Source: Thermothielavioides terrestris NRRL 8126 (lineage: Eukaryota; Ascomycota; Sordariomycetes; Sordariales; Chaetomiaceae). Taken from it: DNA of 64,000 nucleotides. The stretch is taken from the NCBI RefSeq assembly GCF_000226115.1, contig NC_016458.1, forward strand, positions 5,614,001 through 5,678,000, read 5' to 3'. Below are positions 2,967-50,423 of this stretch, piece after piece. How positions within the stretch are numbered: the stretch's first letter is position 1; each line of letters opens with the position of its first letter. The position numbers and the translations under genes are program-made. Under the pieces are notes generated by a model. That model had not been told where the DNA came from. It saw only the letters and a list, made by a program, of their open reading frames with translations, and did not search any database.

Positions 2967-3032
2967 CATATCGTTAGTCTTCATCGGCATGGGAACACGG
3001 CATTTTGGGCGGTGGCAGAGCCCTGCGATGTA

Positions 3033-3412: not shown

Positions 3413-3420
3413 GCGATGTA

Positions 3421-15212: not shown

Positions 15213-15217
15213 AGAGA

Positions 15218-15435
15218 TGTCAGAACCTGGGCCTCAATACCGGGGGCTCGGCACCCACAGGCCGTGCTGCCGTAATTAGGATCCACCAGAGCCACAGATC
15301 TAGATGCCCAGAGTAGCCCTCCTCTACACACACTTTGATCAATACAACGAACAACACTATCATTGATCACCATCTCTATATATTAGGCACTTCGTAATAG
15401 CTTCATTGTCTCCTTCCTATATAGTAGCTTTGTCA
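15218..15435 (+). repeat. Copia 5' LTR
   Basis: This 218-bp repeat begins TGTCAGAACC and ends CTTTGTCA. It matches 44141-44358 along its whole length with differences that are C/T or G/A. It is the boundary where GC-normal flank changes to AT-rich DNA. A short open frame inside both LTRs is not a gene. Confidence 0.92.
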
Positions 15436-18400
15436 ATTAAGAGTCTTATTTGCCTCGAGAACCCGTTAAAACACTATATAGCTCTATATACAACGATTAG
15501 TAAAATCCTTTACTAATACCCCTAAAAAGGATTATTAGAATAGCTACTATATCTTCGAAGGCCAATATAAAGATTAACATTATCCTAGCGAGCCTCAACG
15601 ACTAGGTACCCTAGTATCGCTAGTTTGTTAACAAGGCTATATACTATAAACTTATAAACTATTTCGAAGATAAGGAGGATCGCCTTCGCCCTACCTTAGA
15701 GAGCGTTAACGCCTATAATATAGTCTAGGAGTATATTAATTAGAAGCTCTAGATATATATTATTGAACTAAAGGACACCGAAGATACCAAGGCCTACTAT
15801 ATAGCTTATATTGTAGCCTATAGCGTACTTCGCAACGACCCTTATAACGAACTTTACAACGAGGTCTACGAATATACTCCCAATGTAGAAGCCAACGATT
15901 AAGGCGATCAACTACTTTATAACGAAGATCGCTAATCTATTACTATACTTAGCTACTATAATCGTAGTAACGATAGCTACTCTAACAACGAATAGCACTA
16001 TAGACCTTTGCCTACTGTTGAATCGCTTAATATAGCCTACTAGGAGGTATATAGGGCCCTTAAGAAGAAGCTTAAAAGCAATATTACTACGTTTATTATA
16101 ATAATCTATAAAGAGTGTAATAACTATAATTAGAAGTATAAGCTCTAATACCAACGGCTTAATTAGATAGAACACTTTATAACTACTACTATATTAATGA
16201 ACTACTATACTATATACTTTTTAAAGGGCTACTCCCTTCGAATATAATATTACAACCTTAAGAAGATTGTAAAACCTACTATAGAGACCGAACTCGAGCT
16301 CCGAATATATCTTCGAATCTACTTCGATATACTTAAGTACCTTAGGAATATATATATAAGGGCTACCAAGTTTAAGAGGTAGATCGTTAAATAGGAGAAC
16401 CTAATAGATAAATTGACTATCTAAGGGCTTACTAAAGCTAAGAATCTAGGTATCTAGTTTACTAAACTAATATAGGCCCTTATAAACCCTATTCTAATAT
16501 TTGTTTTATACTATTAGACAAACTAGATAGACTAGATTAAAAAGCTTAGGTTTAGAGATATTGCTACTATAGTCTATAAAGGCGCTAAACCGTTCCTCGA
16601 GAAAGCTCTTAAATACGTTAGCAAAGGCTCCTTTGTAATATATAGAGCTTAGGAGAAAGAAAACAATACCATTGACTACTAAGAACAATAGGGTGACTAT
16701 ACTTATTAGAGCCCCTATAAAGAGGGCGTTAAAGGTAGAAGATTATAGGCTAAGCAGAAGCTTAGTGCAGCTTCTATACCTACTATTCTTATAGTATAGT
16801 CCTCGAATATACCCTAGTGCTATACCTATAACCACTTCTATATAACCGAGCTATATTACTACCTATATCTAGAGAATGTACTAGAGGGCTAGGAGGCTAG
16901 ACCTTATATTAAGGCGTGTATAGGAGCGAATTTAAAGAGCGATTTATCTCTATAAGCTAAAGCGAATAGGCTCTATATAAAGAGATCTAGAACTACGATC
17001 AATAACGACTCTAAGAGCGATAGCGGCGATAAATTACATTAACTAGCTATAGTTTAAGCGGTATAACCTTCGAAGGTACTATAGCTATCGAACTAGGCGG
17101 TATTATACCAATAAGTGTAAAATACAAGTACTAAACACTAGGATTAAGATTATACTAATAGGTATAATACTAACTAAGGCACTAAAAACTATACCAATAG
17201 ACGTAGTGCTAATTAGGCTACCTAGGAGCTAAACGTTGCTCTTAAATACTAGAGTATAGGACGTAATACTAACTAGGCCGCCTAGGAGCCGAATATAGCT
17301 CTAAATAGATCGAACAATAGTACTATACCTCTAAGTAGACTAAATAACATCGCCCTATTTAGCTATTAAATAGCTCGTAGATATATATAGCGAGCTATAG
17401 GCAAATGCTTAGCGAGCTTTATAGCGATCTAAGCAATATACTAAATGGGAGAATTATATCCCCTAATTAACTTAGTGATCCTAGATTTAGGATCAACTAT
17501 TTATATTGCTAACCACCTTAGTAAGTTTAAAAGGCCTTTTAAACTAGTAGCGCTTAACGACTATATCTAGGTAGGTAAATACCCTATTTAGATCGAGGGA
17601 TATAGCAAGATAGATATTAAACTATAGAACAACGAGGGTATCGTAATCATTACGTTATACAATGTTGTATACTACCTAACTTTTATATATAATATTGTAT
17701 CGCTAAAACAACTTAACTAGCGAGGGATCTAGTAGGACAATAGCCTATAGAGCGTACTAAAGTACCCTTTTAGGCAGTACGATCACTCCCTCCTTAGATA
17801 TAGTACTAAACTTTTCTAATAGTACGTCCTTAAGTATATACTAGAGGACTATACGCCTATAGCCTTCGTAATTAGAATATAGAAGCTTAAACGCCTTATA
17901 AGACGTATAGAGAGCGTAGTAAATACTATAACGTAGTACCTACACCTTAGCTATATAGGCCCTAGAGCGCTAGAACACTTCGTTAATTGTTTAAAAGGAG
18001 GCCGAATCAAAGGCATCCCAACTGTTGAGTATAATAGCTATAGCCTCAGTAAGTTAAAACGCTACCCTAGCCGAATACTAAGACCATTTAACTTTAGCCT
18101 AGGCGATCGGATCGCCTTAGACCTTTATCTTTATAAGGAAGGCCAACAGGGTTTTAAATACTTGCTCCTAGCGATAAACCGTTATTTAGATCTTATATAG
18201 GGTTACTATCTATATAACTACGAGGTGGCTAGCATCTTAGTAGCTATTAAATACCTTGTATAGTTCCTTAGAACGTAGTATAAATTATAGATCAAAGTTC
18301 TAGAGTATAACAATGAGTTCACCTAGGCAAGTATTATTACCAACTAGGTATATAAGCAAGGTATTAAGATTGAGCTCTTTACGCCTAATACCTTTACTTA

Positions 18401-19703
18401 GAATAGTAGTGCTAAGCGCTTAGGGGGTATAATCAAGGAGAAGGCTAGAGCAATAGCCAACGGTATATAGTTGCTATAGCAACTATAGCTAGAGATTACT
18501 AGAGTAGTAGTATATCTATATAATAGAACACCTTGTTTAACTACTGAATAGAGAATACTACTAGAGCGCTTTTATAGCGCCCTAGCTACTAGAGATAGCC
18601 TTAATATATTAGAGTATAAGCTATACTAAGGCTACTTAAAGGTCTATAGCTATAAGGCGTTTACGATAATAGATACTACAAAGAAGAAGTAGAAGCGTCT
18701 AGAGCGCCTTCGACTAAGAGTATAGGTTAGGTATCTTGTTGGATATAACTCTTTGAATATCTATTGTATCTAGAACCTATCTACTAATTAGATGGTTTAT
18801 ATCTACGATATTATCTTTAATAAAAAATAAGTGTTCTCTAGCGATAAGGAGGAAATCGCTTAGAGACTTACTTAGATAGACCTTAAAGAGCTAAAGCACT
18901 GGCTTTAAGCTAAGTATATAGATAATACTAACTACGATAGTAACAACGAACTGTTGCCTACGATAGAAGAAGAAGAAGAGGAGCCTACTATAGCGATAGG
19001 TATACTATTAGAGATCAAATAAACAGAAGTGATCACTACTATTAAAGAAGCCCTAGATACTATCGTAGTAAAGGGCGATACCTTTAGAACCTTCCCTAAG
19101 TTCCTATATCTAACTCTACTACTAACACTACTAGCTATACTTATAACAGTAGCCTTCGTTGGCTTATTACCCTTATTATTACTACCTTCTCCTAAATAGA
19201 GGGAGAGCACCTCTAGTACACCCTAAACTAACGCTAAGTACAAGTTTAAACCGTAGTAGGCGGCCTTCTATATAGGAACGCTAGGCCTAAAGGCAAAGGC
19301 TAGGCGCCTAATTAGGAAGATAATCTATCTAGCCAAATAGAAGGAAAAAGAAAGAAAGCTTATATATAAGAAGGTTGCCTAACTAAAGTAAATAAATAAG
19401 CTAAATACTATCTACTAGTTATAGCTACTACTAGAGCTAAAATAGCATTTAGATCTTAGGGACCACCTACTAAAAGAGCTTTTCCTAGAGGCTAAATATA
19501 ATTACCTACGTAGCTATAAAATTAAACAATTCTAAGAGGAGGTTAGCCATTACAACGATTAAGTCAAGGGCAACTAGATCCTTAACAATATATAAGTATA
19601 TATCTATAAGCTTAATAAGATAGGGCACCTTGTCAAATATAAGGCGAGACTTATTGTTTATAGCGATCAATAATAGAAGACCTTAGTAGAAGAGAACTAT
19701 ATA
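15436..19703 (+). pseudogene. Copia gag-protease-integrase remnant
   Basis: Reading through the RIP stops, the plus strand shows in order: a gag region; a degraded zinc knuckle at about 16,815-16,870, where cysteine codons have become Tyr (TGC to TAC); a protease active-site segment ILDLGST with Asp at 17484-17486; and an integrase from about 17,930 to 18,700 (HFVNCLKGG, GDRIALDLYLY, VLEYNNEF). The sequence continues into the reverse-transcriptase lead-in (LVEENYIA), where Gypsy-2 interrupts it. It resumes at 28,006. Non-functional. Confidence 0.85.
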
Positions 19704-19708
19704 GCAAC

Positions 19709-19958
19709 TGATATAGAGAAGTGCCGTAGATGCGTAGAATAACAAGATGTAGATTTATGATAGTGGTAGATCGAAGATCTAGGCGGTAATGCGCTAAGAA
19801 ATATATATCTATAGAGCAGAACATATATGCGTACACCGCCTGCCCGAATAGGCCTAACGTTGCAAAGTCTACAACGTAGGGCGTAGGGCACCTTTATCAA
19901 ATCTATATATATAGACATATAAGTTATATAACCCCCCTATTCCTCCTGCCCTATATCA
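19709..19958 (-). repeat. Gypsy-2 LTR, 3' LTR in element orientation
   Basis: This 250-bp repeat begins TGATATAGAG and ends CCTATATCA on the plus strand. It matches 27751-28000 without indels; the differences seen are transitions. Confidence 0.92.
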
Positions 19959-22900
19959 AGTCTAGGCCTATAGGAAAAAACGGCAATGCCCTCATTGCCT
20001 TACCTATCTAGATCCTCTATATCGTTAAATACCCTTCAATCGAGTACTACGACGTAGGGCTAGAAGCGTAGTGCCGGATTAATCCGGATAGCGATTATCT
20101 GACTTCTTCTATATCTTGTCATCGCTAGTAGGAACAAGGTTCTTACAAGGCTAGCTACGCTTATAGGCCGGTTAAAGTGCCTAATTAGGTATAGGAGGCT
20201 CTTTTCGAGAGACTAGGCGATCTAGATGATCGCCTTTACGAGCCTAGTATTCGTCGATCAGGCACTACGTATAGCGTAGCTTATATATAGTCTTCTAAAC
20301 GCTCTCTTCCTAGCTATAGCCAGTCCATTTGATTAGGTATTTAAGGCCTTTATATATAACCTTGTAGTCAAGGATTATATCAACCTTATATTTGTTATTT
20401 AATTCGTTGTTATTAGAGGAGCAGTCCAATTGAGAGTCGACGATTGGGCTAGGAGGCGGCGTATTATAGCCAAAAGGATTATCTTCCTAAGGAGCTAGAC
20501 GAAGGTAAATAACGGAAATGACTAGGTAGATACCTATATTGGCTAGGAGATCTAATTTATAAGCTAGGCGGCCAACGTAGCGCTTAATCGAAAAAGGCCT
20601 AGCGTACTATTGTAAGTACTTCTAAGACAAGTTGCCTAGGAGATAGTAACTATAATATAAGCGTAAATAAACCTTGTCATCTATATTGAACTTAATGTTA
20701 TAGTGTTTACTATTGTAATAGCGTTTAATATATACTATTGCGAAGTCTATACTTAATTGAGTATCCTAATATAGAGCATCTTATAAAGCTGGAATAGTAG
20801 CTAGCTTAGTAGTAGCCTAGTTAGTAAGAGCTTCTAAAGGTCTAGAAAGCTTAAAGCTGAAGAGCTACTTATAAAGCGAGGATTTAATAGCTTTAATATA
20901 AGCGTTGTTAAAGTACTATTATAGAGGTATAATGATATCTAGCTAATTGCCTTTAGGGTATTTAAATATATAGAAGCGAATTGCAATTTCTATAGTCTAG
21001 TTCTTATACTCTAAAAGGCTATCTACTTATAGGTAGTAGGATATTGTTATTAGCAACTTAGTACCTAGAGCTTTCTAAATGCTTTGCTAAAGGTTAGAAG
21101 TAAATTTGCAATTATAGTCGAAGATAATTGTAGTAGGTACGCCCTAGTCGCTAAGAAGCAGTTAACGAATTAGAATATACCCCTATTCCTAAGCTAAATA
21201 GTTAGAATTGCTAGGAATAAGGAGGGTATACTTCGATGACTTATAAGATACTATAAGCAAACTATTGAAATAGTTATAGTTTAGGAGCTGCTAAGGCAAA
21301 CTAGTAGCTAGGACCCTTGGTAGGCCTAGAATAAAATCGATAGCGATAACGTATATCGGCAAGGTATTAGATAGTCGAATTGGTTGATAGTTGCCTAGTT
21401 CAAAGCAACAATCTATTATATTGACTTAGTACTTTAGGTATAGTTTAATATACTTCTTAACGTTATAGGTTTTATAGGCTATCGATATACCTTGTAAGTC
21501 GTATAATATTCGCTTGATACCAAAGTAGTACTTCTTATTATAGATAGCTTCTAAGATAGTCTAAATTATATTGTAAGATATATAGAGTAAACGTAATCCG
21601 TCGAGTCGAATATTATAGAGAAGGCTATCTATAAAGATAAATGGGAGGCTAGGCTAAAAGAAAACTTTGCTACTGCCCTTAATAGCCGATTCGATAATAA
21701 GATCTTTGATAATAGCGGTGTACTTAGCGTTACAAGAGTATATAGCCGTAAAGCGAGCTTAAAGGTCGTTATCTAGTTTCGCTTTTATAAAGGCGAACTA
21801 GATATTGTTAAGGACTACGTCGTTATTACTAGAGCTATTCTTGTAGTTTAGATTATTCTATAGAGCTTTTAAACGGCTAAGCGTATTAGGCACTTGGTTT
21901 AGACGGCCTAGAAGATAATAGATCTCTAAGTTGTACTACGAAAGGTAAATAGAGGCGTTGATAAGCCTATAATTAGCTCGTTTAGTAGACAATATATCTA
22001 AAATAGTCTAGTTGACAATGCCTTTTGTAGAGGTATAATCTATAAGGACGACGATAGGCTTATATAACAAATAGATTATAGTATATAGCTTTTTAACTAC
22101 TTAAATAAAGTAAGTAACTTCCTATTTGGAAGGCCTATACTAGAGTTCCTCCTTTATAAAGCACCGGCTTAAGAATATAATAGGCTGAACTTAGGTTAAT
22201 AAGATAATAGTCCTAGGCTTCTACTTATAACTATCGGCAAAGTAGAACGCTATAACGCCGAAGCTATGCTCTAGATATCTATCGATCTATAAGAAGAGGG
22301 TCTTATCAAGGTCAAAGTAAACTAAAATAGTAGGGTCTAGCTTATAGATAGTATCTTAGATAGCTTCGAAAGAGGCTTTCTCAATAGGCGTCGGTTCAAA
22401 GGAAGTCCTAGCGTAATAGGCGGCGCACTTGCTAGGGTTGCCGTTTTCTACTTAGCCAATTGCTCAGCCTTTTATAAATAGCGCTGTCTTATAGTTCTAG
22501 AGAGGCTCGATAAGCTATATATAGTATAGGATTAGATAGTGTAGAAATCCCAAGGCACTAATATACTGCTCTAAGGCCTTTAAGTTGTTCGAAAAGGCGA
22601 GGTTCCTAAAGGCGGCGACACAATGCTTAGTATTAGTTAGTCTAAATCTATCGACGTAGAAACCTAGTAGCTCTATACTAGGATACGCGATATACGACTT
22701 AGCTAGTACAATAGAGATGTTCTTTCTCTTAAATAAACTAAAAATGGTTTCTAAGTACTTAGTATACTTATCTATAGTGTTGCTAAAGATGATAATATTA
22801 TCGATAAATATATAGACGAAAGAGGTGTAAAGGCGAAGCAACTAATCTATAAAATGCTAGATATATATAGGGGTATTGCAGTAGCCTATTAGGTACACTT

Positions 22901-25900
22901 TCGGCTATTCTAATCCATGAGGGCTAATCAGGGTAAAGCGGTTGTAATAAGGAGGATATATATCGAATTAGTAGAAGAAAGATATAGCATCGATTATAGT
23001 AATAAACTTCTTACTTTGTAGGTATACGATGATGTCCAATTATAAAGGCAGAGGGTAGTTGTCGAGTACTATAACCTTGTTGAGAGTATATAAATCGATA
23101 ACTATATAGCCTTTAATTTTATTATAAAAGGTATACTAAACGACAAATACTGGGTATACGAAAGGAGTAGCCTTTGTAGCCTACTTGAAGCGCTTTTGTT
23201 AATATAGTTCGTTAAAGGTAGTGTCGAGAACTTTATAATCGCGAGCGCTTAGAGGATATTAGTAGGTACAAATCTTCTAATACTACTAGCCTTCTATAAG
23301 AGGTATTTGTATTATATCCTCTTCGTCCTAGACGACTTAGCCCTTATCCTTCTATAGATGGGGATAACGTTTAATGATATTAACAAATCGCTAAGCTAGC
23401 TTATAATCTTAGGTATATATATATACGCCCTCTAAAGTAAGTATCTTTAGTAAGTCGATAGATATCTTAAGGCCTAGAGTCGAATGCTTCTCTAGTACTA
23501 TTGGCTTATAGTTATTAGGAGGTAATTTGAGGCTAGGCTTATACCTATTAGTATAACTATCCGCCTCTAATATAGGAGGCGTATTACGCTTATTAGTAGA
23601 ATCTAGGTATATAGGCTTAGGGCTTGGATTATACCTATTGGTATAGCCTTCAATATTAGGATCCTAGATCGATTGGCGTAATGTAGGCTAGGTAGGCTAG
23701 CCTAGTGGGTACACCAATTAGTATAATATAGGTCTAGATTCGGATAAAGTAGCTAGCTAATACACTACGTCGCTATAAGGCGTCGATAGCTCTAGCGAAT
23801 CTTACGAAGATGCTAGGGTCTAGGACGAAATATCGTTTACAAGTTGTATAGAGCCTCCTAAAACGGTATAAACTAGGCTATATATATCGAATATAGTTGA
23901 TACGCTAGGGCTAGCGTACTAAATAGCGGTTTAAACTATACTAAGGCTTATAGCAATAGATAATATAGCTATTAAGGCAGTCGCTATAGTCAATACTATA
24001 AAAGCTATCTCCTAAGAATATACGATATAACCGCTATTATTAGTATCCTCGATTTGGCTAATAGGGTAGCGCTTCGGAATAGTAAGAACTCCCTTAGTTA
24101 AGTTCTTAAGAGCTACTACCTTAGGGGTCTTAGCGTTGACAACGATATTTAAAGTAGTAGGATAGCGAACGTTGAACATTATAGACCAGTCTATTGGGAA
24201 AGGCTTATATTCTATAGCAATGTATACTTCCTACTTAGGCTATAAGGTAATAACGTATATAGTCTTGACCTTATATATATAGGGGTATATCTAAGTATAT
24301 ATAGCGAAGGGTATATCGAATCCTCCTAAGATACTATATAGGCTAGCGATTTTTATACTATAATCGATAGAGGCCTAATATAGATCTAGGAAGTTGGCTT
24401 CTAATAGAAGGTTGGTAGGCAGCTTATCTACTACCTAGATGGACTAAGTGAATTTAAGGAGTGCTAGGCCAATGGCTATAACGCCTAGTAGGTAAATGAT
24501 AAAGGTCGCCTACTAGGTAGACAAAGTCTTTCCAATACTATAAATTTGGCTATTATAGCGCTTAATCGAATGTTCAAAGGTATTTAGGAAGGTCTTGTCG
24601 ACGATTGAATAGCTAGTACCTAGATCGAGGCAAACTTCTAGGTCTTTGTAGTCGGGCTAAGTATAGGCCTTGATATGTAAATAGGTATAGGCGCTATATA
24701 GGCTATCGATACTTAGATCGGCTACTTCGGGGGCCTCTTATACTTCTAGGTCGATAACGAAGTCTATAGCTAGACCAGAGCCTTTGGCAAATAGGATATC
24801 ATCCTCTAAGGCGTCTTTAGCGATAGCGATAATATACTCTAAACACTTGATAGTGCTAGAAGCGGCTACTAAATAGGTTTTCAAGTATTTAAAGAGCTAG
24901 TTCTAGGAATCGAACAAAGTATCGCAATATCTATAGGTTTGTTAGCCTAGGTTAGCCTAATTAGCTCGATAGTAGCGAATACTTTTAAGAACGATTGTCT
25001 TGCTATAAGTACAAATATATATATTGATAGCAAGTACTATATTAAAGGTCTAATAACATTTGTAATAGATCAGCTTTGAATTATACGCTATATAGGCGAT
25101 ATCCAACTCGTCGGTACTATCGAAAGTAGATAACTCGCAGTCAATATCAACGTCGTCGTCGACTTCTAAATCGGATAACGTCTTCGAATCAGTATCGTCG
25201 ACAAAGTATATTCGGTCTTAGGCTCGATCGTTACGCTTAGAATTATAGTTATCTAGACAATATTTGCCGCCTTGATTACGATCTCGATTATAGTGGTCAT
25301 CGTCGTAGTTCTAACAGTCGTCGCTATAGCGATCGATACGTCTAGAGAGCTTCTTATTAGACTTAATATTGCTAGAAGTAGTAGACTTACTAGTAAACGA
25401 AGATTTCTTTAACTCTAGGAACTTATTATAAGCTATAGTAACAAACGTAGGCTACACTTCTATAATCTTACGTATATAGTGTACTAGAGTATACTTCATC
25501 TTAGGCTATAGAAGAAAAGATATAATAGTCGAATCTAAACAGTTGTAGATAGTGCCTATAGCATTATACTAGTTGAAATTGTTATAATTAATCTAGCCTA
25601 CTATATATATAAAACGCAACTTCTTCTAAAAGAAGTTCATTAGGGCATTAGAGTTCTCTACGATATATCTAATAGTTAACTGTCCTCGGTTGAACTTGTC
25701 GATAGCTACTTGGCGATCTATTGTAAAACGCTCTACCAATTGATCAAAGACTATATAAAGGCCTACTTAACACTACTATAAACATTCCTATATAGTAACT
25801 TCGCTATTCTACTAGAGGAGGGCTTAGCTAGTAAGAACTATAGGCAGGAGGTATAGGATTTACTAGGCTACATCGTAGCCAGTGTTAGGGTCCTCTAGAA

Positions 25901-28000: not shown

Positions 28001-28005
28001 GCAAC

Positions 28006-29450: not shown

Positions 29451-29455
29451 ATCAC

Positions 29456-32700: not shown

Positions 32701-33648
32701 TATAGAGGAAGGTAACTATTAAGACCAATACCTTCGACTTTGCTATAGGAGTAGTCCTATCTTAAGAAGAAGACAATAGGACGAGACGACCTATAGCCTT
32801 TTAGTTAGCTAAGTTCTTTAGATTATTTAAGAATTATAGGATACCTAATAAGGAAATAATAGCGATTATTAAGGCCTTTAAACATTAGCGCTATTATATT
32901 AAAGGGAGTAACTTTCTAGTTATTATCTTCTCTAACTACAATAATTTATAGAGCTTTATAAAATAAATATACCTAAATAGACATTAAGCTAGGTAGTATA
33001 TATATCTTATAGGGTATAATTTTATTATTAAGTACTAGGCGAGTAAGTGAAACCTAGCCGACAAGCTATTAAGGAGACCCGACTACGAAGAAGGGTCGGC
33101 TTTAGAACGTATAGTATAGTTGCTAACTCTATAGAATAAGATAGTTAGACTCTAGTAAACGTTCATTAAAAAGAGGCTTCTATATATTTAATCTATTATA
33201 TAAATAGGTATAGGATACTAGATACCTAATAGCGTAGAGAGCTAACTATATATTAGCTCTAAGATAGCTATAAAACATTAGACAGTTACTATCTAGCTAG
33301 TAAAGTAGGGTATTTAAGAGCCCCCTAGTATAGATAAACTCAAAGAATTGCTTAGTTAGGAGTAAATTGTACTTAGAAAGGTTGTAGCTACTTATATATA
33401 AGGCGAAGCCCTATATAACTTAGCACTTTCTAAAACAATAAGAGAGTTGATCCTAGAGTTATAGAACTTAAATCTAATAATATAAAGAATTAAAGACCAC
33501 TTATAAACTCTATAGTAAAGAACTAACATTACCCCTAAATAGAAGTTGAGACCTAATAATAAGCTACTATATTAAGCTAAGCTTTATATCTCTACTAAGG
33601 AGGCTATAAAGTAAAAGCTCCTTAGACGACACTATAATGATCTCCTAG
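29790..33648 (+). pseudogene. Gypsy-3 gag-pol remnant, part 1
   Basis: Plus-strand landmarks: gag about 30.2-31.0 kb, with a degraded zinc knuckle near 30,918-30,965 (KIGHFFYNY, Cys to Tyr); protease about 31.2-31.5 kb; reverse transcriptase 31.9-32.5 kb (FISKKDSTFRLYIDY, KLDIKEAYYQI), with YxDD degraded to FLNN at 32262-32273; RNase H about 32.6-33.1 kb; and the start of the integrase zinc-binding region at about 33.58 kb (LLRRHYNDLLVG). Gypsy-4 interrupts here, and the integrase continues at 40,976. Confidence 0.83.
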
Positions 33649-33653
33649 TAGGA

Positions 33654-34039
33654 TGTTACGGCAAGGCAAAACAAGTGCTGGATGACTCGTAGCTAAATTG
33701 ATCCTCGATTGACGAAGACTTCAAATCTAAGAAGAGAGAGGAAAACTATCAATATATAGATGGAAAACTGTGCTCAAATACCTTAAGTGGTATATACAGA
33801 CAATTTGTAGTAGGGCTGCAATTTGTAGTAGGGCTACAAAGTCTGTGTGTTACAGGGTAAGACACGGTTCGCCTTATTAGCGCGTTTTTCCTTATCAGTA
33901 AGTCAACCCCTCCTTCCTAATCTAGAAGTCGACTCGAATCCTGTAAATCCACCAACTTAGGAGGTTATATAAGTATATAGTCATATAATAGGTCTATACG
34001 CAAGTTATATAATGGTGGTCAGTGTGCTATACTATTATA
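33654..34039 (-). repeat. Gypsy-4 LTR, 3' LTR in element orientation
   Basis: This 386-bp repeat begins TGTTACGGCAAGG. Compared with 40585-40970 (TGTTATAGTAAGG) it shows C/T and G/A differences only in the parts I compared. Each copy keeps some GC that the other has lost, so both were mutated independently. Confidence 0.92.
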
Positions 34040-37000
34040 TTACCCCCCCCTCGAAAAAGCGTTGTGCCTATACGACGGATGCGTTGCGGTCCTCTGCTAG
34101 CTGTTGGTAATCAGAAGGGTTGGCTTGCAAGCCCATTTTTTACGAAGTTTATACAATTGAGTTCTATAGGACTTAGAAATCTGCCCTATAGCCTACTAAG
34201 CTATATAAGATGCTATATCTAGGCTAGTAGGTATACGAGGGAGCTAGGATAAAATGTTATTCTACAACCTTATAGTAGATTTATATATACGCGCGACGTC
34301 TCCTAGATCGAGTTGGATCGCATTGTCCTTTAGGTACTAGTAGGTTATCATCTAGGTGTTTATTATCAAAGTAATCCTCTTTATAAGCTTTTAGCTATTA
34401 TAGTAATCGCCAAGGTAGTCTAGCTATATAGGGGAATTTCTTATAGAACTCCTAGAGGCGGTATAGTATATTCTTGAAATTAGTAGCGTCGTACTATTCG
34501 GGGTCCTCGCCCTAACCGATCTATTGAGCATAATACTAAAGTTTCCCTTTGAATATCTAAGAGGCAAGAATCTTTTCGACTTACTATTCTAATTCGCTAT
34601 CTACCTCAATCGGCGGCTTAGGCTAGGGCTCTTAACCTAGTAATAGGTTATTTAGTACCTTTTAGAGTCGATCTAAGGTAAATACTAGGTATATCTTCCA
34701 AGTCTTAGATAGCTTTAGCTTATAGGAATAACCTTTCTTAACAATAATCGGAAAAGGCCTAGCGACTAGGTAGTCAAGCTTATCGCTTAGTCGGTTTATC
34801 TACTAATGGCCCTTCGTAATATAGACCTCCTAACCAACTTTAAATTCTTCTAGCTACCGATATTTATCTATTTACTACTTTTAAGCTTTCTAGGCTTTCT
34901 ATATACTTTCTTTAGCGAATTAGATAATAGAATTGATTTTAAAGAGTATCTCCTATACTTTAGTGCAATTAAGCTTATCTTTAACGCTACTAAATTCTCA
35001 AGTATACTCCTACTAATTATAGGTTATCCAAGGGAGTATATTAGTCTCGACTTCGAATAGAGCAAGGCTAGTAGACGAGTAGAGTAAAATAGCTTAAGTA
35101 AAATCTATTGTAGGCAATAATTCTAATTAATTGTCTTAGAAATAGTTAACAAAGGGGCGTAGACGCTAGTCGAGGTATTGATTTATAATTTCGATCTACC
35201 TATCCGTCTAGGGGTACTCCGAAGAAGAGAGGTATAGGTTAATTCTAAGGATCTTATAGAACTCGTCCTAAAATACTAAGATAAACTAAGGGCCTTAGTC
35301 CAAAGTGATTGATTCTAGGGCTCTATAGGTATACCAAATATATTAGTAGTAGAATTATACTATCTCTTTAGCAATAGTAGTCTTATAGTAAGGGAGCGAG
35401 TAGCTATGCTTCCCTAGGCGGTCTACTACAACAAAGACTTAGTCGTAGCCCAACTTATCTTAGGGCATTGCATAGAAGTCTATAGTAACGTACTACTAAG
35501 GTCTTATAAGGACCTCTAAGGGTTTAAGGAGGCCTAGTAGCTTGTTATAAGGTATATAGGAACGTTGGCAAGTCTAGCAATTCTTAACGAACCTATCGAT
35601 ATCTCCTATTTACCTTAGCTAAAAGTATTGTCTCTGGACTAACTCTTATATCTTATTCCTATCTAGGTAGGCTATAGAGATTTAGTTATAGATCTTAGCT
35701 AATAGGTAGATTCGTAGGTAACTATCTAATAGAACTATTAGCCTCTCTCCCTTCAATAGGAGGCTACTATCGCTTAGGGTCTAGTCGGTATTATTCTAGT
35801 GGACAAGCTCCTAAAAACTCTCTAGGGCTTTGCTCTCCTAGTTCGCTTTAAGGATAGTATCTACTAGTTTATATCCTTCGAGTCGTTATAAGCGAGATAG
35901 CTCGGATTCGTCGGCTTCGATTTAATAGATTATACATTGTAAGTCGTACTTAACAGGCTCCTTAGGCGATAACTCTAGCTCCTTTAGGATCTATAGGTCT
36001 AGCTTGCTCTTAGGGAGGACCATCTAGGTATAATAAGCTTCTTAGACTTCCTTCTAGGTAGCGAGCTCCTTAGCCTTATAGGATAGGGCATCGGCAACAG
36101 CGTTCTATTTGCTAGGTCGGTAGACGATTTGAAAATCTAGGGCGGAGAGGAGCTTAGCCTATCCGGCTTATCGTATATTAAGTAGCCTCTTTTATATAAA
36201 GTATTGCAATATATAGTAGTTGAATAAGATGTTGAACCGCTACTAGAGGCTAAGTAGCATTAAGTACTATTCTTCAATAGTATATATAATAGTAAAGAGC
36301 TCTTTATTGTAGATAGGGTAATTGCTTTCTAGTCTAGACATTGTTCTTAAGAAGAATGTAATAAGGTGCTAACTATTGTTATATTTCTACTAGAAGACTC
36401 TAGCTACGACTCTACTAGATATATCGACTTTAATTTAACTCTCTCTAGTAGAATCGTAGTATTTAAGGAGTAGGGTATTGGTCATTCGCCTCTTAAGTTC
36501 TTAGAAGGCTTCCTTATACTCTTTAGTCTATTTGAATGGTTTTCCCTTAATAATTAGGCGCTATAGAGGATATATAATCCTTTTATACTTATAGACAAAT
36601 TAACAGTAAAAGTTGTAGAATCTAAAGAAGGCTTATACTTCCTATATAGTAGTAGGTCGGTCTTAAGAAACTATCGTCTTAATCTTCTTTAGGTCTACTT
36701 AGACGCCTTTAGTACTAACGATAAACCTAAGGAACTTAGTTTCAGTAGTATAGAATTTATATTTCTTAATGTCCACTTAGAGACCTACTTTATATAGCTT
36801 CTAGAGGATAAGTCGTATATATTTACAATGCTTTTCCTCGTTCTAAAAGTAGATAATTAGGTTATTGATATAGGCGGTTATAAATACGTCGAAGTATTCA
36901 AAGAACTAGGAATTGACAAATTGCTAGAAGATAGTAGGTCCATTGTATAGGCTAAACGGTAGGACCTTATAGTAGAATTGACTATATTAGGTTTAGAAGG

Positions 37001-40000
37001 TTGTTAGGTCTTCGTTTCTAGGGGCAAGTCGGATTTAGTAGAAGGTTTACTAGATATCGATCTTAGTAAAGATTTTAGCGTTTCCCAATTATTATAAAGT
37101 TTCGTCAATATAGGGTAGTAGATAGCAGTCCTTGACAGTGACCTTATTTAGAGCTTAGTAGTCGACGTAAAATCTCTAGGTCCTATCTCCTTTAATAGCA
37201 AAGAGTATAGAGGAGCTATATAAAATAGTACTTAGCTCGATAAAACCCTTCTATAGGTTCTCAACTAGGTACTTTTTTATAGTCTCTAGCTAGTTGAGGA
37301 TATAAGAGTATAGGGGGCTTACTTGCTAGGGTAGTGGTCTAGTGAGTTTAATCTTATAGTCGTATTTACGCCTTAGTAATATCTTATTAAATTCCTTTTT
37401 TAAGAATACAACAGTAAATTCGATAAGATAAAGGTACTTTATAATTACTTCCTCGACTCGAGCTTAGACCTCTTTGTCCTCGTCGTTAGGGAGTTTATTA
37501 ATCTTCTTAGCCTTAATAGCTTAGTTAATCTAGGCGATTGTAATAAACCCTAATATAGAATTCCCTTATTGGTTTCCCTTAAAGAATATTTTGTCAAAGG
37601 CTATAGTAGAGATGACTATAGCTTTAATCGAGTCTTCTAGAATCTGTGGTCGCTCGCCCTCTTCTACCTAGAAGGTAGCCTATTCCTCCTCTTCCTTAGG
37701 TATTATAAGTCGAGTATAAGTTCTTAGAAGGATAAATTCCTCTCCCTTTAGTGCCTAGTCCATCTTCTAGAGGCTATCGTCCTATACGCCTTTAAACGAT
37801 ACCTTCTAAAGGGGTTTCTTAGGGGGTTCAATAAGATTACTCCTAGTAGTATACGTTTCAAAGACTTCGAGTTATACCGATTAGTATAATCCTAGGCTTA
37901 TCTTAGGTTATACTAATCAATATATTTCTAGATCTTCAATAGGTTATACCAATTAGTAGGATTTATCAAGTAAAGGTTTAGAGAGTATTTCTCTACACTT
38001 TAATATTTATAGCTACTATTGAACCTTCTAACGTTAATCTTAACGCTCTATCGCTTAGTCTCTCTATTTAATATCCTTTTAATGTTTAGGGTTTAGTGCC
38101 TTAGGAATAAGGGAGTCGTAAAGAATCTTAAGGATATAATTCTATTCTAGATTATATAGTTTATCTTTAAGCTAGATCAGTCGATATTAGCGAATATCTA
38201 GTAGAATATCGTAGTAAATAAGCTACTATCGGCTTAATAATAGCTAATACTTCTTCCCTATATCGAAGGCTAAGAATAGAGTATCCTTCTATATTCTCCT
38301 ATCAATTCGAAGGTCGAGTCTTAAGATCGAGTTGATAAGGTCCATAGATCGGCCCTAGAAGTCTTTTATAGAGATCGGAGTCTCGAGTAGTATCCCTTTA
38401 ACGCTAAGTTTCTTAGCGATTCGCTTTATATAAGTTCGATTAAGGAAAGCGTATTCGTTTACTCTAAAGTCAACAAGTATAGTGATAGTAATATTAATTC
38501 TATTAATAGCTAATATATAAAGGAAAGAGAGACTTCGACTACCTATAAGCTACTAAAGGTCTACCTAGGTAACCGCTAACCTAATATCTAGCCCTAAGCT
38601 AGAGTCTACTTTTCTTAGGGCTTTTAGTTTTCTAATTCGATAGTCTTAGTCTTATTTTCTTTAATTGAATTCGTTATTTTCTCTAAGTCTACCTCTATCT
38701 TCTTAATTATAGCTGTAATACGTTTTAGGCACTACGCCTTTATATAACTAGTCTCCTAGCAATAGAAGCATTTACCCTCCTTTCTTAGGGTATTACGCTC
38801 CTTCTAAGAGAGCTTAGGAGATCTCGATTTAGCCTTACCTCTATTGGAACTATCTGGCTAAAAGGTCTTTTCTTTCTTCTTTATAAAAGCTATTCCTTCG
38901 TTTAGTTGTCTAAATCCAGTGAACTAGATTTTCTATTCTTCTAATCCTTCTTAGCTATTTCCTAAAGTAAGAAGAACTAGTATCTAAAGCGAGTAAAGTC
39001 GTTAAAGCTGATATTCGGATCGACTAGGTCTCTTACTATCTAGAAACGTAGGCTCTAAGAGAGTCGAGTATAGAATTCTTCTTTCTACTTGTCCTTAGGT
39101 TTTTTAGACTTAGTAGCAAGGTAGATAAACTTGGTAAAGAACTTATAGTAGAGTATAGATCCTATCTTTAGGACTATAAAATCGTTCTTTATACGACGGA
39201 GTTCGGTAGAATTAGTATAAAATCCATCTAGGAAGTCGAATAACTCGTTAAGATCAGTGATTAGCTTTACTATATCCTCTTCGAGGTAGGGTATAAGAGC
39301 CTTTATTACTTCGCTACTAATAAAGGATACTATATATCTAAATTTCAAGTCCTCTATTAGAAACAATTTATAGTTCTTTTTAATCTTCTAAAGTATAGCT
39401 ACCTTCTAAATTAAATACTTTAGGTCTTTACTATCGATAAACTTCTTAGGGTCGGCAATCTTTGTAGTTTTTATATAAATTGTAGGTTCGAGAGTCTTTT
39501 CAATCGTTGGGATTAGACGATCGAGGTTATATAACTCTATATATATCTTAGTTTACGTTGATTCGGTTTAGGTCGAAGGTATAGCTTAGCCCTATAGATC
39601 GATTATATTAACAATCTTCTTAAAGAGTTCCGTCCTCTCGTCTTCCAATGCTATCTTATTGTATAAGAGTACTTCGACTTAGGCGTATAAAGTAGGAAGT
39701 TCTTTAGGGTCAAGGATATTACCTTGTTCTTATTTAAACTACTGAACCTTTGTAAATAGTACTACTATCGAATTGGCTAGCGCATTGTAGATAACTTATA
39801 AGGCTATAGCCTATCCGATTACTATATCGCGCTATATAATGATCGATTGAATTATCTTAATAAGATCGTTGCTTTGTAATTGATCGACCTATTCGATGCT
39901 CAACAGCTAGATCTCCTTAAGAGCGATCAGTTCATTATCTTAAAGGAAATAGGCAATAGCAATATACTTGTTTTTAAGCCTTAGATAGCACTTAATCAAA

Positions 40001-40584
40001 TCTATCTTCTATTTCTTAGCTAAATACTCGATCTAGCTAATTCGGTTAAAAAACTTAGGAATAGGATTTATAAGTTTATATTCCTCGATTAAGTTAGCGG
40101 TTATTTAGGTTCAAGAGCTAAATAGAGTTAAATCGCTAATCTTCGATCGAATTTAGATACCTTGGTTACCTCCTACGTTAAACTCGTAGAGATCTACTAG
40201 ATTAATCTTCTAGGTGTTCTAGCTCTATTCGATAGGCCTAGGAATATAATCTACGTTCTCTGTTTTACAAGCCATTGTTGGTATCGTACCTCTTTTAGGA
40301 CTTCTTCTATCGATCGATATAGTTGAATCGCCTCGACGAGGTAATCGTACTACTTACCGTTAATCGATCAGAAGTTACTTCGCTATCGGCAATCTATTGT
40401 ACATTTAACGGTTTGTCCTCGATGCCAATTAGTTCCTAGCCAACCTATCGCACTGCACTATTAGCAAGTCGAAGGTTCTATTAGAGATTTAGGTTCCCTA
40501 GCCAACTAAATTGGTCCTGTCAAGAAAGACTATATTGGATATTATATTACCTTCGTAGGCCTATAGTAGTAAGACTTAAAGTAA
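34040..40584 (-). pseudogene. Gypsy-4 gag-pol remnant
   Basis: Minus-strand landmarks from the 5' end of the element: gag about 40.3-38.8 kb, including a 93-codon open piece at 39085-39366; zinc knuckle about 38,710-38,780 (KCFYC then H and C in CCHC spacing); protease segment ILVDFRVNEYAF near 38.47 kb, keeping Asp at 38469-38471 but having lost Ser-Gly; reverse transcriptase about 37.6-36.6 kb, with YxDD degraded to YINN at 36861-36872; integrase about 35.9-34.9 kb (IDFYAMP, LGYD, VFVVVDR near 35.45 kb); and a chromodomain-like C-terminus at about 34.56-34.40 kb (GEDPE, DATNFKNILYRL). Non-functional. Confidence 0.83.
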
Positions 40585-40970
40585 TGTTATAGTAAGGTAA
40601 AACAAGTGCTAGATGACTTATAGCTAAATTGATCCTCGATTGACGAAGACTTTAAGTCTAAGGAGAGAGAGGAAAACTATCAATATATAGGTAGAAAACT
40701 GTACTCAAATACCTTAGGTGGTACGTATAGACAATTTATAGTGGGACTGCAATTTACAGTGGGGCTACAAAGTCTATATGTTGTAGGGTAAGACGCGGTT
40801 CGCCTTATTAGCGTGTTTTTCCTTATCGGTAAGTCAACCCCTCCTTCCTAATCCGGAAGTCGACTCGAATCCTGTAAATCCACCAACTTAGGAGGTCACG
40901 TGAGTATGTAGTCACGTGACAGGTCCGTACGCAAGTCATATGACGGTAGTTAGCGTGCTATGCCGTCATA
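40585..40970 (-). repeat. Gypsy-4 LTR, 5' LTR in element orientation
   Basis: Partner of 33654-34039, also 386 bp. It ends TGCCGTCATA before the TAGGA duplication, and the Gypsy-3 integrase resumes immediately after. Confidence 0.92.
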
Positions 40971-40975
40971 TAGGA

Positions 40976-42250
40976 CACTTTAGTTATAACTAAACTAAGG
41001 AGTTAGTATAACGAAAGTACTATTAGCTAAGTATCAATAGAGAAGTAAACGAATACTATAATACCTACCTAGTATATTAGTACTAGAAATCGTCGAGATA
41101 TCGACTTTATAGTAACCTTTAATTACTACTAATATCGATATAACCTTAGAACAAGATTACTATAGATTTTATTATAGGTTTTCCTATAGTAGAATAACTA
41201 GATAGTAAAAAGGATATAATCCTAGTTATAGTCAACCAATATACGAAGATAAGTCGATTTTTCCCTATCTCAACCTCTATTTATAGCTAAGAGTTAATAG
41301 AACTCTTTTATTAAAAGATTAAGCTTAAGTATAGAGTACCTTATAGATACCTTAGCGATTAAAGCTTAGTCTTTATCTCCTAATTTTAAAGCGATCTTTA
41401 CTATTTAAACTAAGTAAACTATAGACTTTCAATAGCATTTTACCCCTAAACCAATAGCTAGATCGAACAAATAAACTAAACCCTTATCTAATACCTCCGA
41501 TATTTCACCTCTTTAAATCCTATTACTTAGGTAATATTCTTCTCTAAAGCTAAATTCGCTTATAACAATTCTATTAATACAACTATTAGCGTTACCCCTT
41601 TTTAAACACTTATAGGTTACGACTCTACAATTTCCTATTGTATTAAGGACGATGCTTAATAGAGGAAGGTACTATACCTTAATGTAGTAGAACGGATTAA
41701 GAAGCTTAAAGAGTTATACCAATAGCTAGAGCAACACTAGGATAATACTATAGTAAGTTAAAAACGGTATTACAACGAAAAATATAAGCTAATAGAGTTT
41801 TAGAAAAGAGCCTTAGTCAAGTTGTCTACTTAGAATTTAAAACTTAAGACTAGTAAGAAGCTAAAGCCCTAGTTTATTAAGCTATTCTAAGTATTAAACT
41901 AAGTAGGATCGCTAGTATATTAGTTGGCCTTGCTATATAAGTATATAAAGCTATATAATATATTCTTAGTAGCTCTGTTAGAGCTCTAGTATATACGAAC
42001 TATAGTCGAAGAAACCTAGATGCTAATACTAGACCTAGAGGATAATAAAGAATAGAAAGTCGAAGAAGTATAGGCTAAATAGCAAATCGAAAGCGAAATA
42101 TTCTTTTAGGTAAAGTAGGTAGGTTGGCTATTAAAGTATAACTAATAGGTCTATAAAGACGATATAGCAAATGTATAGTAGATAATCTATTAGTTTCAAC
42201 GAATATATAAAGCTATTACTAAAAGAAAGTAAAGGGAAGATGTCTAAGGT
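40976..42250 (+). pseudogene. Gypsy-3 gag-pol remnant, part 2 (integrase, chromodomain)
   Basis: This is the direct continuation of the frame broken at 33,648. It shows the rest of the integrase zinc-binding region, then the catalytic core (TIDFIIGFPIVE near 41.15 kb; LVIVNQYTKISRF near 41.23 kb; YRVPYRYLSD near 41.33 kb). Beyond it lie a basic/coiled region and a degraded chromodomain (GWLLKYN, YKDDIANV) at about 42,120-42,200. Stops are again at TAG/TAA. Confidence 0.8.
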
Positions 42251-42399
42251 GTATTAAGCAATATACAATATAACAATATTAAGTCGACTTAGTCGTAGCT
42301 AAAGACCGATATATATAAATTAATTTATATAGTTATATATAGATAAAACGACTAGATCCTTTCCCTAAAACCTCAATTAAACTATTAAAGAACGCTAGG

Positions 42400-43007
42400 T
42401 TAGCGACTTATAAAGTAGGTAAATTCGCTCTATTAGGTCTAAAGCGTTGTTATAGTCGCTAATATTATTAGCGATTAGTAGGATTAAAGCCTTAGCAAAG
42501 TTATATTTCACCTAAGTCTAGGCGAGGTAGCTAACGTCGTTGGGATATAGGCGATAGGCTCTCTTTAAGTCCTAGACTTACAAATTGTATTAGTACTAAA
42601 TCGCTATTAACATTTCGGTTATCTAACCTAAGGGATAAACGAGAGCGACTTACTAACGACTAAGATATATTAGCTAAACGCTTAGGGCGTAGAAAGAGGG
42701 AGATATTAAGCTCTATATACTTAACTACTATAGCTTTAAAAGCTAATTGCTAGTCGGTAGTAAGCCGTTTATTTAACGTAATACTATAGATATAGCAATA
42801 AGCCTCGTCTATAGCGTAGAATATATCGACCAACTTTTTTAACAAATATATAATACTATAGCGAGTATTGTCTAAAAGGGCGAATTCCTCGTTGTCCTCC
42901 TAACCGCTAAAGGACTTGTAATTAGATAGAACCTAACTCTCCTTAGCCTTATAGAGGAGGTAAGCAATATATAAACTGATTATTAGATTAGTTAAATCGC
43001 TAGACAT
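42400..43007 (-). pseudogene. Antisense ORF remnant in the 3' region of Gypsy-3
   Basis: From an ATG at 43007 the minus strand reads about 170 codons with only a handful of stops before about 42,480, in DNA where other frames stop far more often. The stops are TAG or TAA that RIP could have made from CAG, CAA or TGG. The reading contains plausible protein text such as DNEEFALLDNTRYS, KKLVDIFYAIDEAY and LVLIQFVSLGLKESL. It lies between the chromodomain and the 3' LTR, opposite to gag-pol. No family was recognised. It may be an accessory antisense ORF of the element, a captured gene piece, or chance. Confidence 0.4.
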
Positions 43008-43729
43008 TATACTAATAGCCTAATAGAGTTAATAGGCGAACTACTACTAAGTATTAGTCCTAAGCTACTTACTAATATATAAATATCCTTTTTCTTAATA
43101 TATTGATTATAGCGATTTAAAGAAGACTTAGTAATAATATACTTAGGAATAATAGATATTAATAAGTTAAATAAAAGATTTTTATATATTATATATAGAT
43201 ATTTAAAGTATAGCGACTTCTTATAGGTAGGAAGTATAAAGAACTCTTTAAGATCTATAATAAATCAATAGAGAGAAGGTAGTAAGTATAAAATAAAGAG
43301 AAACAACGATATATAGATAGTAATGAATATAAGAACGTAAAGCGAGTAAATAAAGAAGAAGAGGGCATTACAATTAATAAGATAATAATATATAAAGAAA
43401 AGAAAATATAAAGTACAAAGTATAGCTATAACAATATAAATTTAAAAGTAAAGAGTAGATAGTCTATATATAATAGTAAAATATAAATTATTATAAAAAG
43501 GGTAAAGTATACTATATACGTTGCCCTAGTAACTAGTCTAACTCTATAGGGACACTCTACCGAATCCTAGGCGAAGCTTATAGTTAGGTAGACAATCTAT
43601 TACCCTTTATACTACTAGTTAGCAAGTCTATATAGGTAGATAGACCTTTTCTAGAGATTAAGTAATATAGTATACTATCGACTATAAAGTCTAAACCTAA
43701 AGATAGGTTCTATAGAAGGGAGGATAAAC
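43008..43729. other. Gypsy-3 untranslated 3' region
   Basis: Very AT-rich DNA with no sustained frame. It ends in a purine-rich AGAAGGGAGGA-type run just before the 3' LTR, a likely polypurine tract for plus-strand priming. Confidence 0.5.
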
Positions 43730-44063
43730 TGTTATAGTATATATATAAACCGCTATTAAGTAGAAGCTAGCACAGTTCTAAGACGGAGTAAGTATCTAAA
43801 ACCTAGAAGCTTATATCTATAATATACGATATAACGTATATACTTAGAGCCTAGGAACCGTAGCTAAAAGGGTAGGTAGTCGTCTACCGAGGTAGAGGAA
43901 GATTTCGGATCCTCTAAGGATCAGCCTCTGATTATAATAGGAGACGTATTTAGACAGTGTCGCCTTGGAAACTGCAATTACTCGCCTTGGTCATTGCTAT
44001 AGTACTGTTGTACTTCTCTGCCTTGAGGCATCTCACCAGTAGCACTCGAAGACTCCTGTTATA
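43730..44063 (+). repeat. Gypsy-3 3' LTR
   Basis: 334 bp, partner of 29456-29789. Its right half keeps more GC than the 5' copy, for example GTGTCGCCTTGG here against GTGTTGCCTTAG there. Confidence 0.92.
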
Positions 44064-44140
44064 ATCACTAGGATAGCGATAGCATTAGGGTTACTAAATG
44101 TAGTAAATAGGCTAGAGCCACGGCTCGACCTAGGGGGGTA

Positions 44141-44358
44141 TATCAGAACCTGGGCCTCAATACCAGGGGCTCGGCACCCACGGGCCGTACTGCCGTAATT
44201 AGGATCCACCAGAGCCACAGATCTGGATACCCAGAGTAGCCCTCCTCCATATACACTTTGATCAATACAACGAACAACACCATCATTGATCACCATCTCT
44301 ATATATCAGGCACTTCGTGATAGCTTCATTGTCTCCTTCCTACGCAGTAGCTCTGTCA
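44141..44358 (+). repeat. Copia 3' LTR
   Basis: 218 bp, partner of 15218-15435. The terminal TG has become TA (TATCAGAACC). It ends CTCTGTCA and is followed at once by the AGAGA duplication and GC-normal flank. Confidence 0.92.
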
Positions 44359-44363
44359 AGAGA

Positions 44364-50364: not shown

Positions 50365-50423
<59 letters not shown>

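What the first reader, a model, noticed from the sequence alone, without database searches (positions are those of the whole stretch)
15213..44363. Four-element nested LTR retrotransposon stack, fully resolved with target-site duplications
Four LTR pairs (218, 250, 334 and 386 bp) nest without conflict, and each pair is flanked by a perfect 5-bp duplication: AGAGA, GCAAC, ATCAC and TAGGA. The order of events is fixed: Copia first; Gypsy-2 and Gypsy-3 into Copia; Gypsy-4 into Gypsy-3. Subtracting guests gives normal host lengths (about 6.2 and 7.3 kb), and the broken reading frames rejoin across each insertion. A 29-kb block that looks featureless is thus explained almost base by base.
Basis: seen in the sequence. 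Interest (0 to 1): 0.8.

Follow-up and report, generated by a model that had tools for sequence, protein, structure and literature searches.

The report
Nested, RIP-mutated fungal retrotransposon stack

Summary
The stack is real and exact to the base. A Ty1/copia element (15218-44358) holds two Ty3/gypsy elements (19709-28000, 29456-44063); the second holds a third (33654-40970). Four LTR pairs and four perfect 5-bp duplications are confirmed. Uninterrupted copies elsewhere run across all three internal sites; reading frames resume in phase at the two coding sites. All 140 LTR-pair differences are transitions. LTR divergence runs opposite to nesting order, so it is no clock. Further: in 32 of 32 elements RIP is skewed away from the outer ends, and Copia beside the Gypsy-2 site shows no such sparing, so Copia was probably mutated before Gypsy-2 came; the timing of Gypsy-4 is open. 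The nearest flanks are RIP-mutated in 30 of 32 for gypsy copies and 1 of 10 for Copia copies. Ordinary kind; useful natural experiment.

The parts
15213..15217 (.). Copia target-site duplication, left (AGAGA)
44359..44363 (.). Copia target-site duplication, right (AGAGA)
15218..15435 (+). Copia 5' LTR, 218 bp, TG..CA
   Evidence: 16 differences to the 3' LTR, all transitions
44141..44358 (+). Copia 3' LTR, 218 bp (begins TA)
15436..19708 (+). Copia body, first piece (Pol_BBD about 17478-17726; integrase and start of RT only by alignment to P0079)
   Evidence: Pol_BBD E 0.00067, below cut-off; P0079 E 7e-97
28006..29455 (+). Copia body, second piece (RVT_2 about 28022-28543, from profile position 64)
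   Evidence: RVT_2 E 3.4e-13; P0079 E 2e-89
44069..44140 (+). Copia body, last 72 bp before the 3' LTR
   Evidence: the four uninterrupted copies align from 44064 or 44070 onward
19704..19708 (.). Gypsy-2 target-site duplication, left (GCAAC)
   Evidence: present once in 4 of 4 uninterrupted Copia copies
28001..28005 (.). Gypsy-2 target-site duplication, right (GCAAC)
19709..28000 (-). Gypsy-2, Ty3/gypsy-like element on the minus strand, 8,292 bp, inside the Copia RT domain
   Evidence: (RVT_1 E 5e-7, just over cut-off; SH3_Tf2-1 and Chromo below cut-off); RVT_2 spans the site in L001
19709..19958 (-). Gypsy-2 left LTR, 250 bp
27751..28000 (-). Gypsy-2 right LTR, 250 bp
29451..29455 (.). Gypsy-3 target-site duplication, left (ATCAC)
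44064..44068 (.). Gypsy-3 target-site duplication, right (ATCAC)
29456..33653 (+). Gypsy-3 first piece with 5' LTR 29456-29789; RT about 31935-32405, RNase H about 32622-33011
   Evidence: RVT_1 E 4e-13, RT_RNaseH_2 E 2e-20
40976..44063 (+). Gypsy-3 second piece: integrase remainder, SH3_Tf2-1 about 41813-41983, chromodomain about 42032-42172, 3' LTR 43730-44063
   Evidence: SH3_Tf2-1 E 3e-6, just below cut-off; chromodomain by tblastn, E 4e-7 in a small database
33649..33653 (.). Gypsy-4 target-site duplication, left (TAGGA)
40971..40975 (.). Gypsy-4 target-site duplication, right (TAGGA)
33654..40970 (-). Gypsy-4, Ty3/gypsy element on the minus strand, 7,317 bp, inside the integrase H2C2 region of Gypsy-3; RT about 36726-37187, RNase H about 36255-36527, H2C2 about 35559-35714
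   Evidence: (RVT_1 E 1e-16; H2C2 below cut-off); H2C2 spans the site in L005
33654..34039 (-). Gypsy-4 left LTR, 386 bp
40585..40970 (-). Gypsy-4 right LTR, 386 bp

Best explanation
A Ty1/copia retrotransposon integrated at AGAGA into GC-rich DNA of a filamentous fungus. Its copies were recognised as repeats and mutated by RIP (C to T, mainly at CpA and CpG), which made an AT-rich island. Ty3/gypsy elements, at least one with a chromodomain, then integrated into that island: Gypsy-2 into the Copia RT region, Gypsy-3 near the Copia 3' LTR, Gypsy-4 into the Gypsy-3 integrase region; each was mutated by RIP in turn. Shown: structure, nesting, target duplications, frame phase at two sites, RIP signature, weaker RIP towards outer ends, association of gypsy copies with RIP-mutated flanks. 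Inferred: that Copia was already mutated when Gypsy-2 arrived (about 0.75), that gypsy integration is steered by chromatin marks (about 0.5), and the species. The confidence below is for structure, nesting and RIP.
For: LTRs and target duplications. Domains. Uninterrupted copies bridge the sites with a 5-bp overlap in 17 of 17 comparisons; single domains run across two of the sites in L001 and L005. Frame phase agrees at both coding junctions. LTR pairs in the stack: 140 transitions, 0 transversions over 1,188 sites, no gaps. RIP index CRI 1.07 to 1.55 in the six large pieces against -0.50 and -0.58 in the flanks. Three DNA_methylase loci in the genome. Gypsy flanks RIP-mutated 30 of 32, Copia flanks 1 of 10. 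Copia beside its two junctions 31/81 mutated against 4/68 at its outer ends. An independent Gypsy-3-in-Copia insertion at L005.
Against: The timing is not shown for every guest. At the Gypsy-4 site the mutated fraction (13/51) does not differ from Gypsy-3's outer ends (11/57, P 0.49), although it equals that of uninterrupted copies at the same site (116/458). Beside the Gypsy-3 site Copia is less mutated than other copies at 60-120 bp on the left (5/27 against 36/112) and at 77-150 bp on the right (2/44 against 27/179), and the last 290-bp Copia piece has CRI 0.00; this fits some RIP after that insertion. The edge effect is weak in Gypsy-2. No chromodomain was found in Gypsy-4, and Gypsy-2's match is below cut-off. 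ATCAC is found letter for letter in 0 of 4 uninterrupted Copia copies and TAGGA in 3 of 9 Gypsy-3 copies. RIP in Neurospora is known to leak into flanks (PMC7296669, passage); none is visible here at 150-bp steps.
Confidence: 0.9

Rival explanations
1. The guests inserted first into unmutated hosts, and RIP mutated the whole stack later.
For: The Gypsy-4 site cannot be told from Gypsy-3's outer ends by mutated fraction (13/51 against 11/57); Copia near the Gypsy-3 site is under-mutated at some distances. If RIP pairing can bridge a looped-out guest, junctions would show no edge in either case.
Against: Copia beside the Gypsy-2 site is strongly mutated (26/57 within 60 bp, against 56/217 in uninterrupted copies), where about 3% was expected if the junction behaved like Copia's outer end. 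Gypsy copies elsewhere also lie in RIP-mutated DNA, while RIP does not visibly spread into Copia's flanks here.
Confidence: 0.2
2. The LTR pairings are chance matches among many related copies, or an assembly chimera, not true elements.
For: By bit score the right-hand LTRs of Gypsy-2, -3 and -4 match copies elsewhere as well as or better than their partner.
Against: Four perfect target duplications at exact ends, host lengths equal to uninterrupted copies, frame phase kept, and among the LTRs fetched none is free of transversions against the pair in Copia (0 of 8), Gypsy-2 (0 of 11) and Gypsy-3 (0 of 20).
Confidence: 0.03
3. Gypsy copies accumulate in RIP-mutated DNA because insertions in genes are selected against, not because integration is targeted.
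For: No data on new insertions are at hand; chromodomain evidence is firm only for Gypsy-3.
Against: Copia copies, under the same selection, survive beside DNA that is not RIP-mutated (9 of 10 flanks).
Confidence: 0.35

Closest known systems
Ty1/copia LTR retrotransposons of filamentous ascomycetes (GalEa-type anatomy as described in PMC5445492; passages seen)
   Same: There: LTRs of 235 bp on average bounded by TGT and CA, 5-bp target duplication. Here: 218 bp, TGT..CA in the 5' LTR, 5 bp, RVT_2
   Different: Clade (GalEa, FunCo1 or other) not tested; body split by guests and mutated by RIP
Ty3/gypsy chromoviruses of fungi (PMC3248453; passages seen: most fungal gypsy elements carry a chromodomain)
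   Same: RT, RNase H, integrase zinc domain, SH3 and chromodomain in Gypsy-3; best relative P0001 at 48% identity with these domains
   Different: Chromodomain not found in Gypsy-4, below cut-off in Gypsy-2
RIP-mutated nested retrotransposon blocks of filamentous fungi (recalled; papers on the theme seen only as listings)
   Same: AT-rich island, CpA-biased transitions
   Different: Small (29 kb), lying between GC-rich flanks, with every layer still delimited
crapaud LTR element of Podospora under RIP (PMC10787394; passages seen)
   Same: The authors also caution against clocks based on LTR divergence
   Different: The reasons they give are diversification of U3 and gene conversion; here it is position-dependent RIP

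Membership tests
Ty1/copia (outer element) | RVT_2-type reverse transcriptase | tested here: met
   E 3.4e-13, above cut-off
Ty1/copia (outer element) | Integrase lies before RT | tested here: met
   P0079 (listed with rve and RVT_2) aligns colinearly, aa 1-812 then 766-1190; rve itself not hit by Pfam in the window
Ty1/copia (outer element) | LTRs ending TG..CA with 5-bp target duplication | tested here: met
   (3' LTR begins TA); 5 of 5 letters duplicated in 4 of 4 other copies
Ty3/gypsy (Gypsy-3) | Order RT, RNase H, integrase | tested here: met
Ty3/gypsy (Gypsy-4) | Order RT, RNase H, integrase | tested here: met
   H2C2 E 7e-5, below cut-off
Ty3/gypsy (Gypsy-2) | Order RT, RNase H, integrase | tested here: inconclusive
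   RVT_1 just over cut-off, SH3_Tf2-1 below it; P0001 aa 217-626 aligns at 20% identity
Chromovirus | Chromodomain after the integrase, Gypsy-3 | tested here: met
   window E 4e-7 and 9 of 9 other copies (E 7e-5 or better, small database); not seen with the Pfam model
Chromovirus | Chromodomain, Gypsy-2 | tested here: inconclusive
   Chromo E 0.006-0.007, below cut-off; no tblastn hit
Chromovirus | Chromodomain, Gypsy-4 | tested here: inconclusive
   none; only 7-residue matches at E 7.6 in 4 of 10 copies; the sequence is heavily mutated
RIP | Transitions only, CpA-biased, confined to repeats | tested here: met
   140 of 140 transitions, CpA 73, CpG 45, CpT 13, CpC 9; flanks not visibly affected
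RIP | RID-type cytosine methyltransferase and a sexual cycle | tested here: inconclusive
   three DNA_methylase loci; which, if any, is RID was not tested; a sexual cycle is not testable here

The most novel reading that the evidence does not exclude
RIP fades over the last 150-200 bp before homology ends, and this leaves a readable scar: the outer ends of an element carry it, but host DNA beside a later insertion does not. Nested stacks in RIP fungi then record the order of transposition and mutation layer by layer, with paired LTRs as an internal control (same sequence, two distances from the edge). Here this says that Copia was mutated before Gypsy-2 arrived, and it suggests that RIP islands founded by Copia in GC-rich DNA become landing sites for chromodomain elements.
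Probability: 0.4. Interest if true: 0.55.

Novelty: new member of a known kind. Interest (0 to 1): 0.35.

Why it matters
The stack itself is an ordinary outcome of retrotransposition plus RIP. It matters as a worked example: the oldest layer has the lowest LTR divergence, and over four families divergence goes with LTR length, so insertion ages read from such LTR pairs in this genome would mislead. The edge effect, seen in 32 of 32 elements examined, bears on how RIP senses the limits of homology, and could help to order events in other RIP-mutated repeat blocks.

Tried and rejected
The ARAGORN scan found no tRNA; Rfam found one tRNA outside the stack. Plus-strand scan of Gypsy-2 (5 of 6 stretch-frames given) and minus-strand scan of the 5' part of Gypsy-4 gave no domains; the plus strand of Gypsy-4 and the minus strand of Copia and Gypsy-3 were not scanned. 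An LTR clock was rejected because all differences are RIP-type. A reading frame spanning the joined outer flanks was looked for; the longest stop-to-stop frame is 137 aa, so Copia is not shown to interrupt a gene. Library searches for a RIP edge effect (seen as listings, 0, 15 and 10 papers listed) gave nothing usable. One search listed PMC4858203, whose main text does not hold the word 'edge' and describes one construct with few mutations in its first ~130 bp, as well as mutation of single-copy DNA between close repeats (section 11 read). This does not show that the effect is unpublished: many older RIP papers are not in the library.
Full report
Observation. The six large pieces of the block have a GC content of 0.30-0.37, the last 290-bp Copia piece 0.49, and the flanks 0.60 and 0.58. 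The window lies on a 9.48-Mb contig of a 36.9-Mb, six-contig genome. From recall this fits Thermothielavioides (Thielavia) terrestris NRRL 8126; PMC8176577 (passages seen) gives 36.9 Mb, 54.7% GC and a telomere-to-telomere sequence for that strain. The species was not tested further.

Identity of the layers. Copia carries RVT_2 on the plus strand; its second piece begins at profile position 64, so the domain is split by Gypsy-2. Gypsy-3 (plus) and Gypsy-4 (minus) carry RVT_1 and RNase H; Gypsy-2 (minus) carries RVT_1 barely over the cut-off. Searching the RT to RNase H part of Gypsy-3 gave 78 proteins (only the 7,995 candidates sharing most words were scored); the best, P0001 (48% identity, 1,225 aa), is listed with RT, RNase H, integrase, SH3 and chromodomain, and the chromodomain is listed for 10 of the 10 best hits. 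The chromodomain end of P0001 finds a counterpart in Gypsy-3 of the window and in 9 of 9 other Gypsy-3 copies; in Gypsy-4 and Gypsy-2 sequences it gave only 7-residue matches at E 7.6, in 4 of 10 other Gypsy-4 copies. For Copia 3 proteins passed E 1e-10 among 7,984 scored; two are from Talaromyces.

Nesting tested without cutting anything out. I took 28 full-length copies, picked by eye from the hit lists as LTR pairs at full-length spacing: 4 Copia, 9 Gypsy-3, 10 Gypsy-4, 5 Gypsy-2. At least one shorter-spaced Gypsy-4 pair and some wider-spaced pairs were left out. Against uninterrupted host copies, the two sides of each insertion site overlap by exactly 5 bp in 17 of 17 comparisons, by gapless extrapolation from local alignments. 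The duplicated word itself is found letter for letter in 4 of 4 for GCAAC, 3 of 9 for TAGGA and 0 of 4 for ATCAC; the other copies have variants. In L001 one RVT_2 match runs across the Gypsy-2 site, and in L005 one H2C2 match across the Gypsy-4 site. Relatives' proteins align on both sides of these two sites in the codon phase expected after subtraction (phase arithmetic mine); the left Copia alignment overruns its junction by 136 bp. The 28 other copies also have 5-bp duplications: 23 perfect, 4 with one transition, 1 (L024) with 3 of 5 letters.

RIP. The four LTR pairs differ at 140 of 1,188 sites; all are transitions and there are no gaps. By context CpA 73, CpG 45, CpT 13, CpC 9, with the neighbour read from the copy that keeps C or G. 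Over 32 elements (the 28 plus the four here) there are 1,177 transitions, 2 transversions and no gap columns in 10,136 sites. The two LTRs of each element were thus practically identical at insertion. Only for Copia (left LTR, 33 of 33 candidates scored) is the partner the best match. Counting transversions alone restores the pairs: other LTRs free of transversions against the pair number 0 of 8 (Copia), 0 of 11 (Gypsy-2) and 0 of 20 (Gypsy-3), among the LTRs fetched, the nearest differing by one transversion. Gypsy-4 is not resolved this way (16 of 22 free of transversions); there the target duplication and the full-length fit carry the argument.

Divergence is not age. LTR divergence is 7.3% in the outermost and oldest element, 10.8% in Gypsy-2, 13.2% in Gypsy-3 and 13.7% in the innermost, the reverse of what a clock predicts. 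Over 32 elements it rises with LTR length (Spearman 0.62, P 0.00016; the copies fall into four families, so these are not 32 independent points).

Edge effect. Within one element the two LTRs began identical but lie in mirror-image positions relative to the outer ends. In 893 of 1,177 differences the mutated copy is the one farther from its outer end, and 32 of 32 elements lean that way (sign-flip P 5e-5, the floor of 20,000 flips; the four stack elements alone P 0.06, the floor with four). By quarters of the LTR from left to right the counts, left copy mutated/right copy mutated, are 47/283, 88/148, 143/90, 323/55. Gypsy-2 is the weakest family (15/24, 21/22, 22/16, 28/9), and a second measure shows little gradient in it (0.22 mutated at 0-60 bp, 0.29 at 480-960 bp). 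Relative to 200-300 bp from the end the odds of mutation are 0.19-0.23 within 60 bp (bootstrap limits 0.09 to 0.39), 0.46 at 100-150 bp (0.33-0.61) and 0.78 at 150-200 bp (0.53-1.13). The effect is seen in Copia, mostly in GC-rich surroundings, and in gypsy elements embedded in other mutated repeats, so it seems to follow the end of homology and not the end of the AT-rich block (my inference).

Order of RIP and insertion. If a guest splits a host before RIP, host DNA beside the junction should look like an outer end. I counted, for each copy, mutated sites among those where another copy keeps C or G. Within 60 bp: Gypsy-2 site 26/57 in the window and 56/217 in uninterrupted copies; Gypsy-3 site, left side, 5/24 and 17/103; Gypsy-4 site 13/51 and 116/458. 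Outer ends in the window: Copia 4/68, Gypsy-3 11/57. Copia junctions differ from Copia outer ends (31/81 against 4/68, P 2e-6); the Gypsy-4 junction does not differ from Gypsy-3 outer ends (P 0.49). Other counts at the Gypsy-3 site point the other way: 5/27 against 36/112 at 60-120 bp on the left; 8/38 against 43/167 at 0-77 bp and 2/44 against 27/179 at 77-150 bp on the right. Reading: Copia was probably mutated before Gypsy-2 came; Gypsy-3 perhaps came while Copia was still being mutated; the Gypsy-4 case is open. Caveats: RIP pairing might bridge a looped-out guest, and sites in one stretch are not independent, so the P values are optimistic.

Where gypsy elements land. Flanks were fetched for 20 of the 28 copies (4 Copia, 9 Gypsy-3, 5 Gypsy-2, 2 of 10 Gypsy-4). 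With GC below 0.45 and CRI above 0 in the 500 bp nearest the element (25 bp skipped), gypsy flanks are RIP-mutated in 30 of 32 and Copia flanks in 1 of 8, or 1 of 10 with this window; over the whole 2 kb, 27 of 32 and 1 of 8. By element with both near flanks mutated: 14 of 16 against 0 of 5, P 0.001. RIP does not visibly spread into Copia's flanks here, so the gypsy flanks were probably mutated for their own sake. A genome baseline was not obtained. L005, a Gypsy-3 copy, is flanked on both sides by Copia sequence meeting at window 16080-16084, an independent case of the same nesting.

Conclusion. The finding is right as anatomy, and ordinary in kind: nested LTR retrotransposons under RIP. The additions are that RIP, not time, made the LTR differences; that RIP weakens near the ends of homology; and that Copia probably founded the island on which gypsy elements, at least one with a chromodomain, settled.

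Noticed in passing
window 2560-3417; by eye also 58100-58213: A short dispersed repeat with a degenerate telomere-like (CCCTAA) motif and inverted arms. The genome search gave 496 first-look candidates, of which 40 were scored; the best matches are 92-97% identical over about 315 of 461 bases. It looks little touched by RIP (not measured), perhaps a MITE short enough to escape it.
   Followed up: partly
G000 contigs C1, C2, C3 and C5: Five RVT_1 matches with equal scores lie in stop-free frames of 1,324 aa, so a reverse-transcriptase family with open, unmutated-looking frames exists in this genome.
   Followed up: no
L005 (C4:686591-693874): A Gypsy-3 copy inserted in another Copia copy, independent of the stack in the window.
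   Followed up: partly
L024: A full-length Gypsy-4 copy whose flanking 5-bp words agree at only 3 of 5 letters, perhaps a recombinant.
   Followed up: no
window 50987-51097 and 50367-50420: A tRNA match of 111 bp, long enough to hold an intron, and an uninterrupted run of 54 A.
   Followed up: no
window 9671-12086: Two frames matching a TRPY1/YVC1-like calcium channel in the left flank.
   Followed up: no
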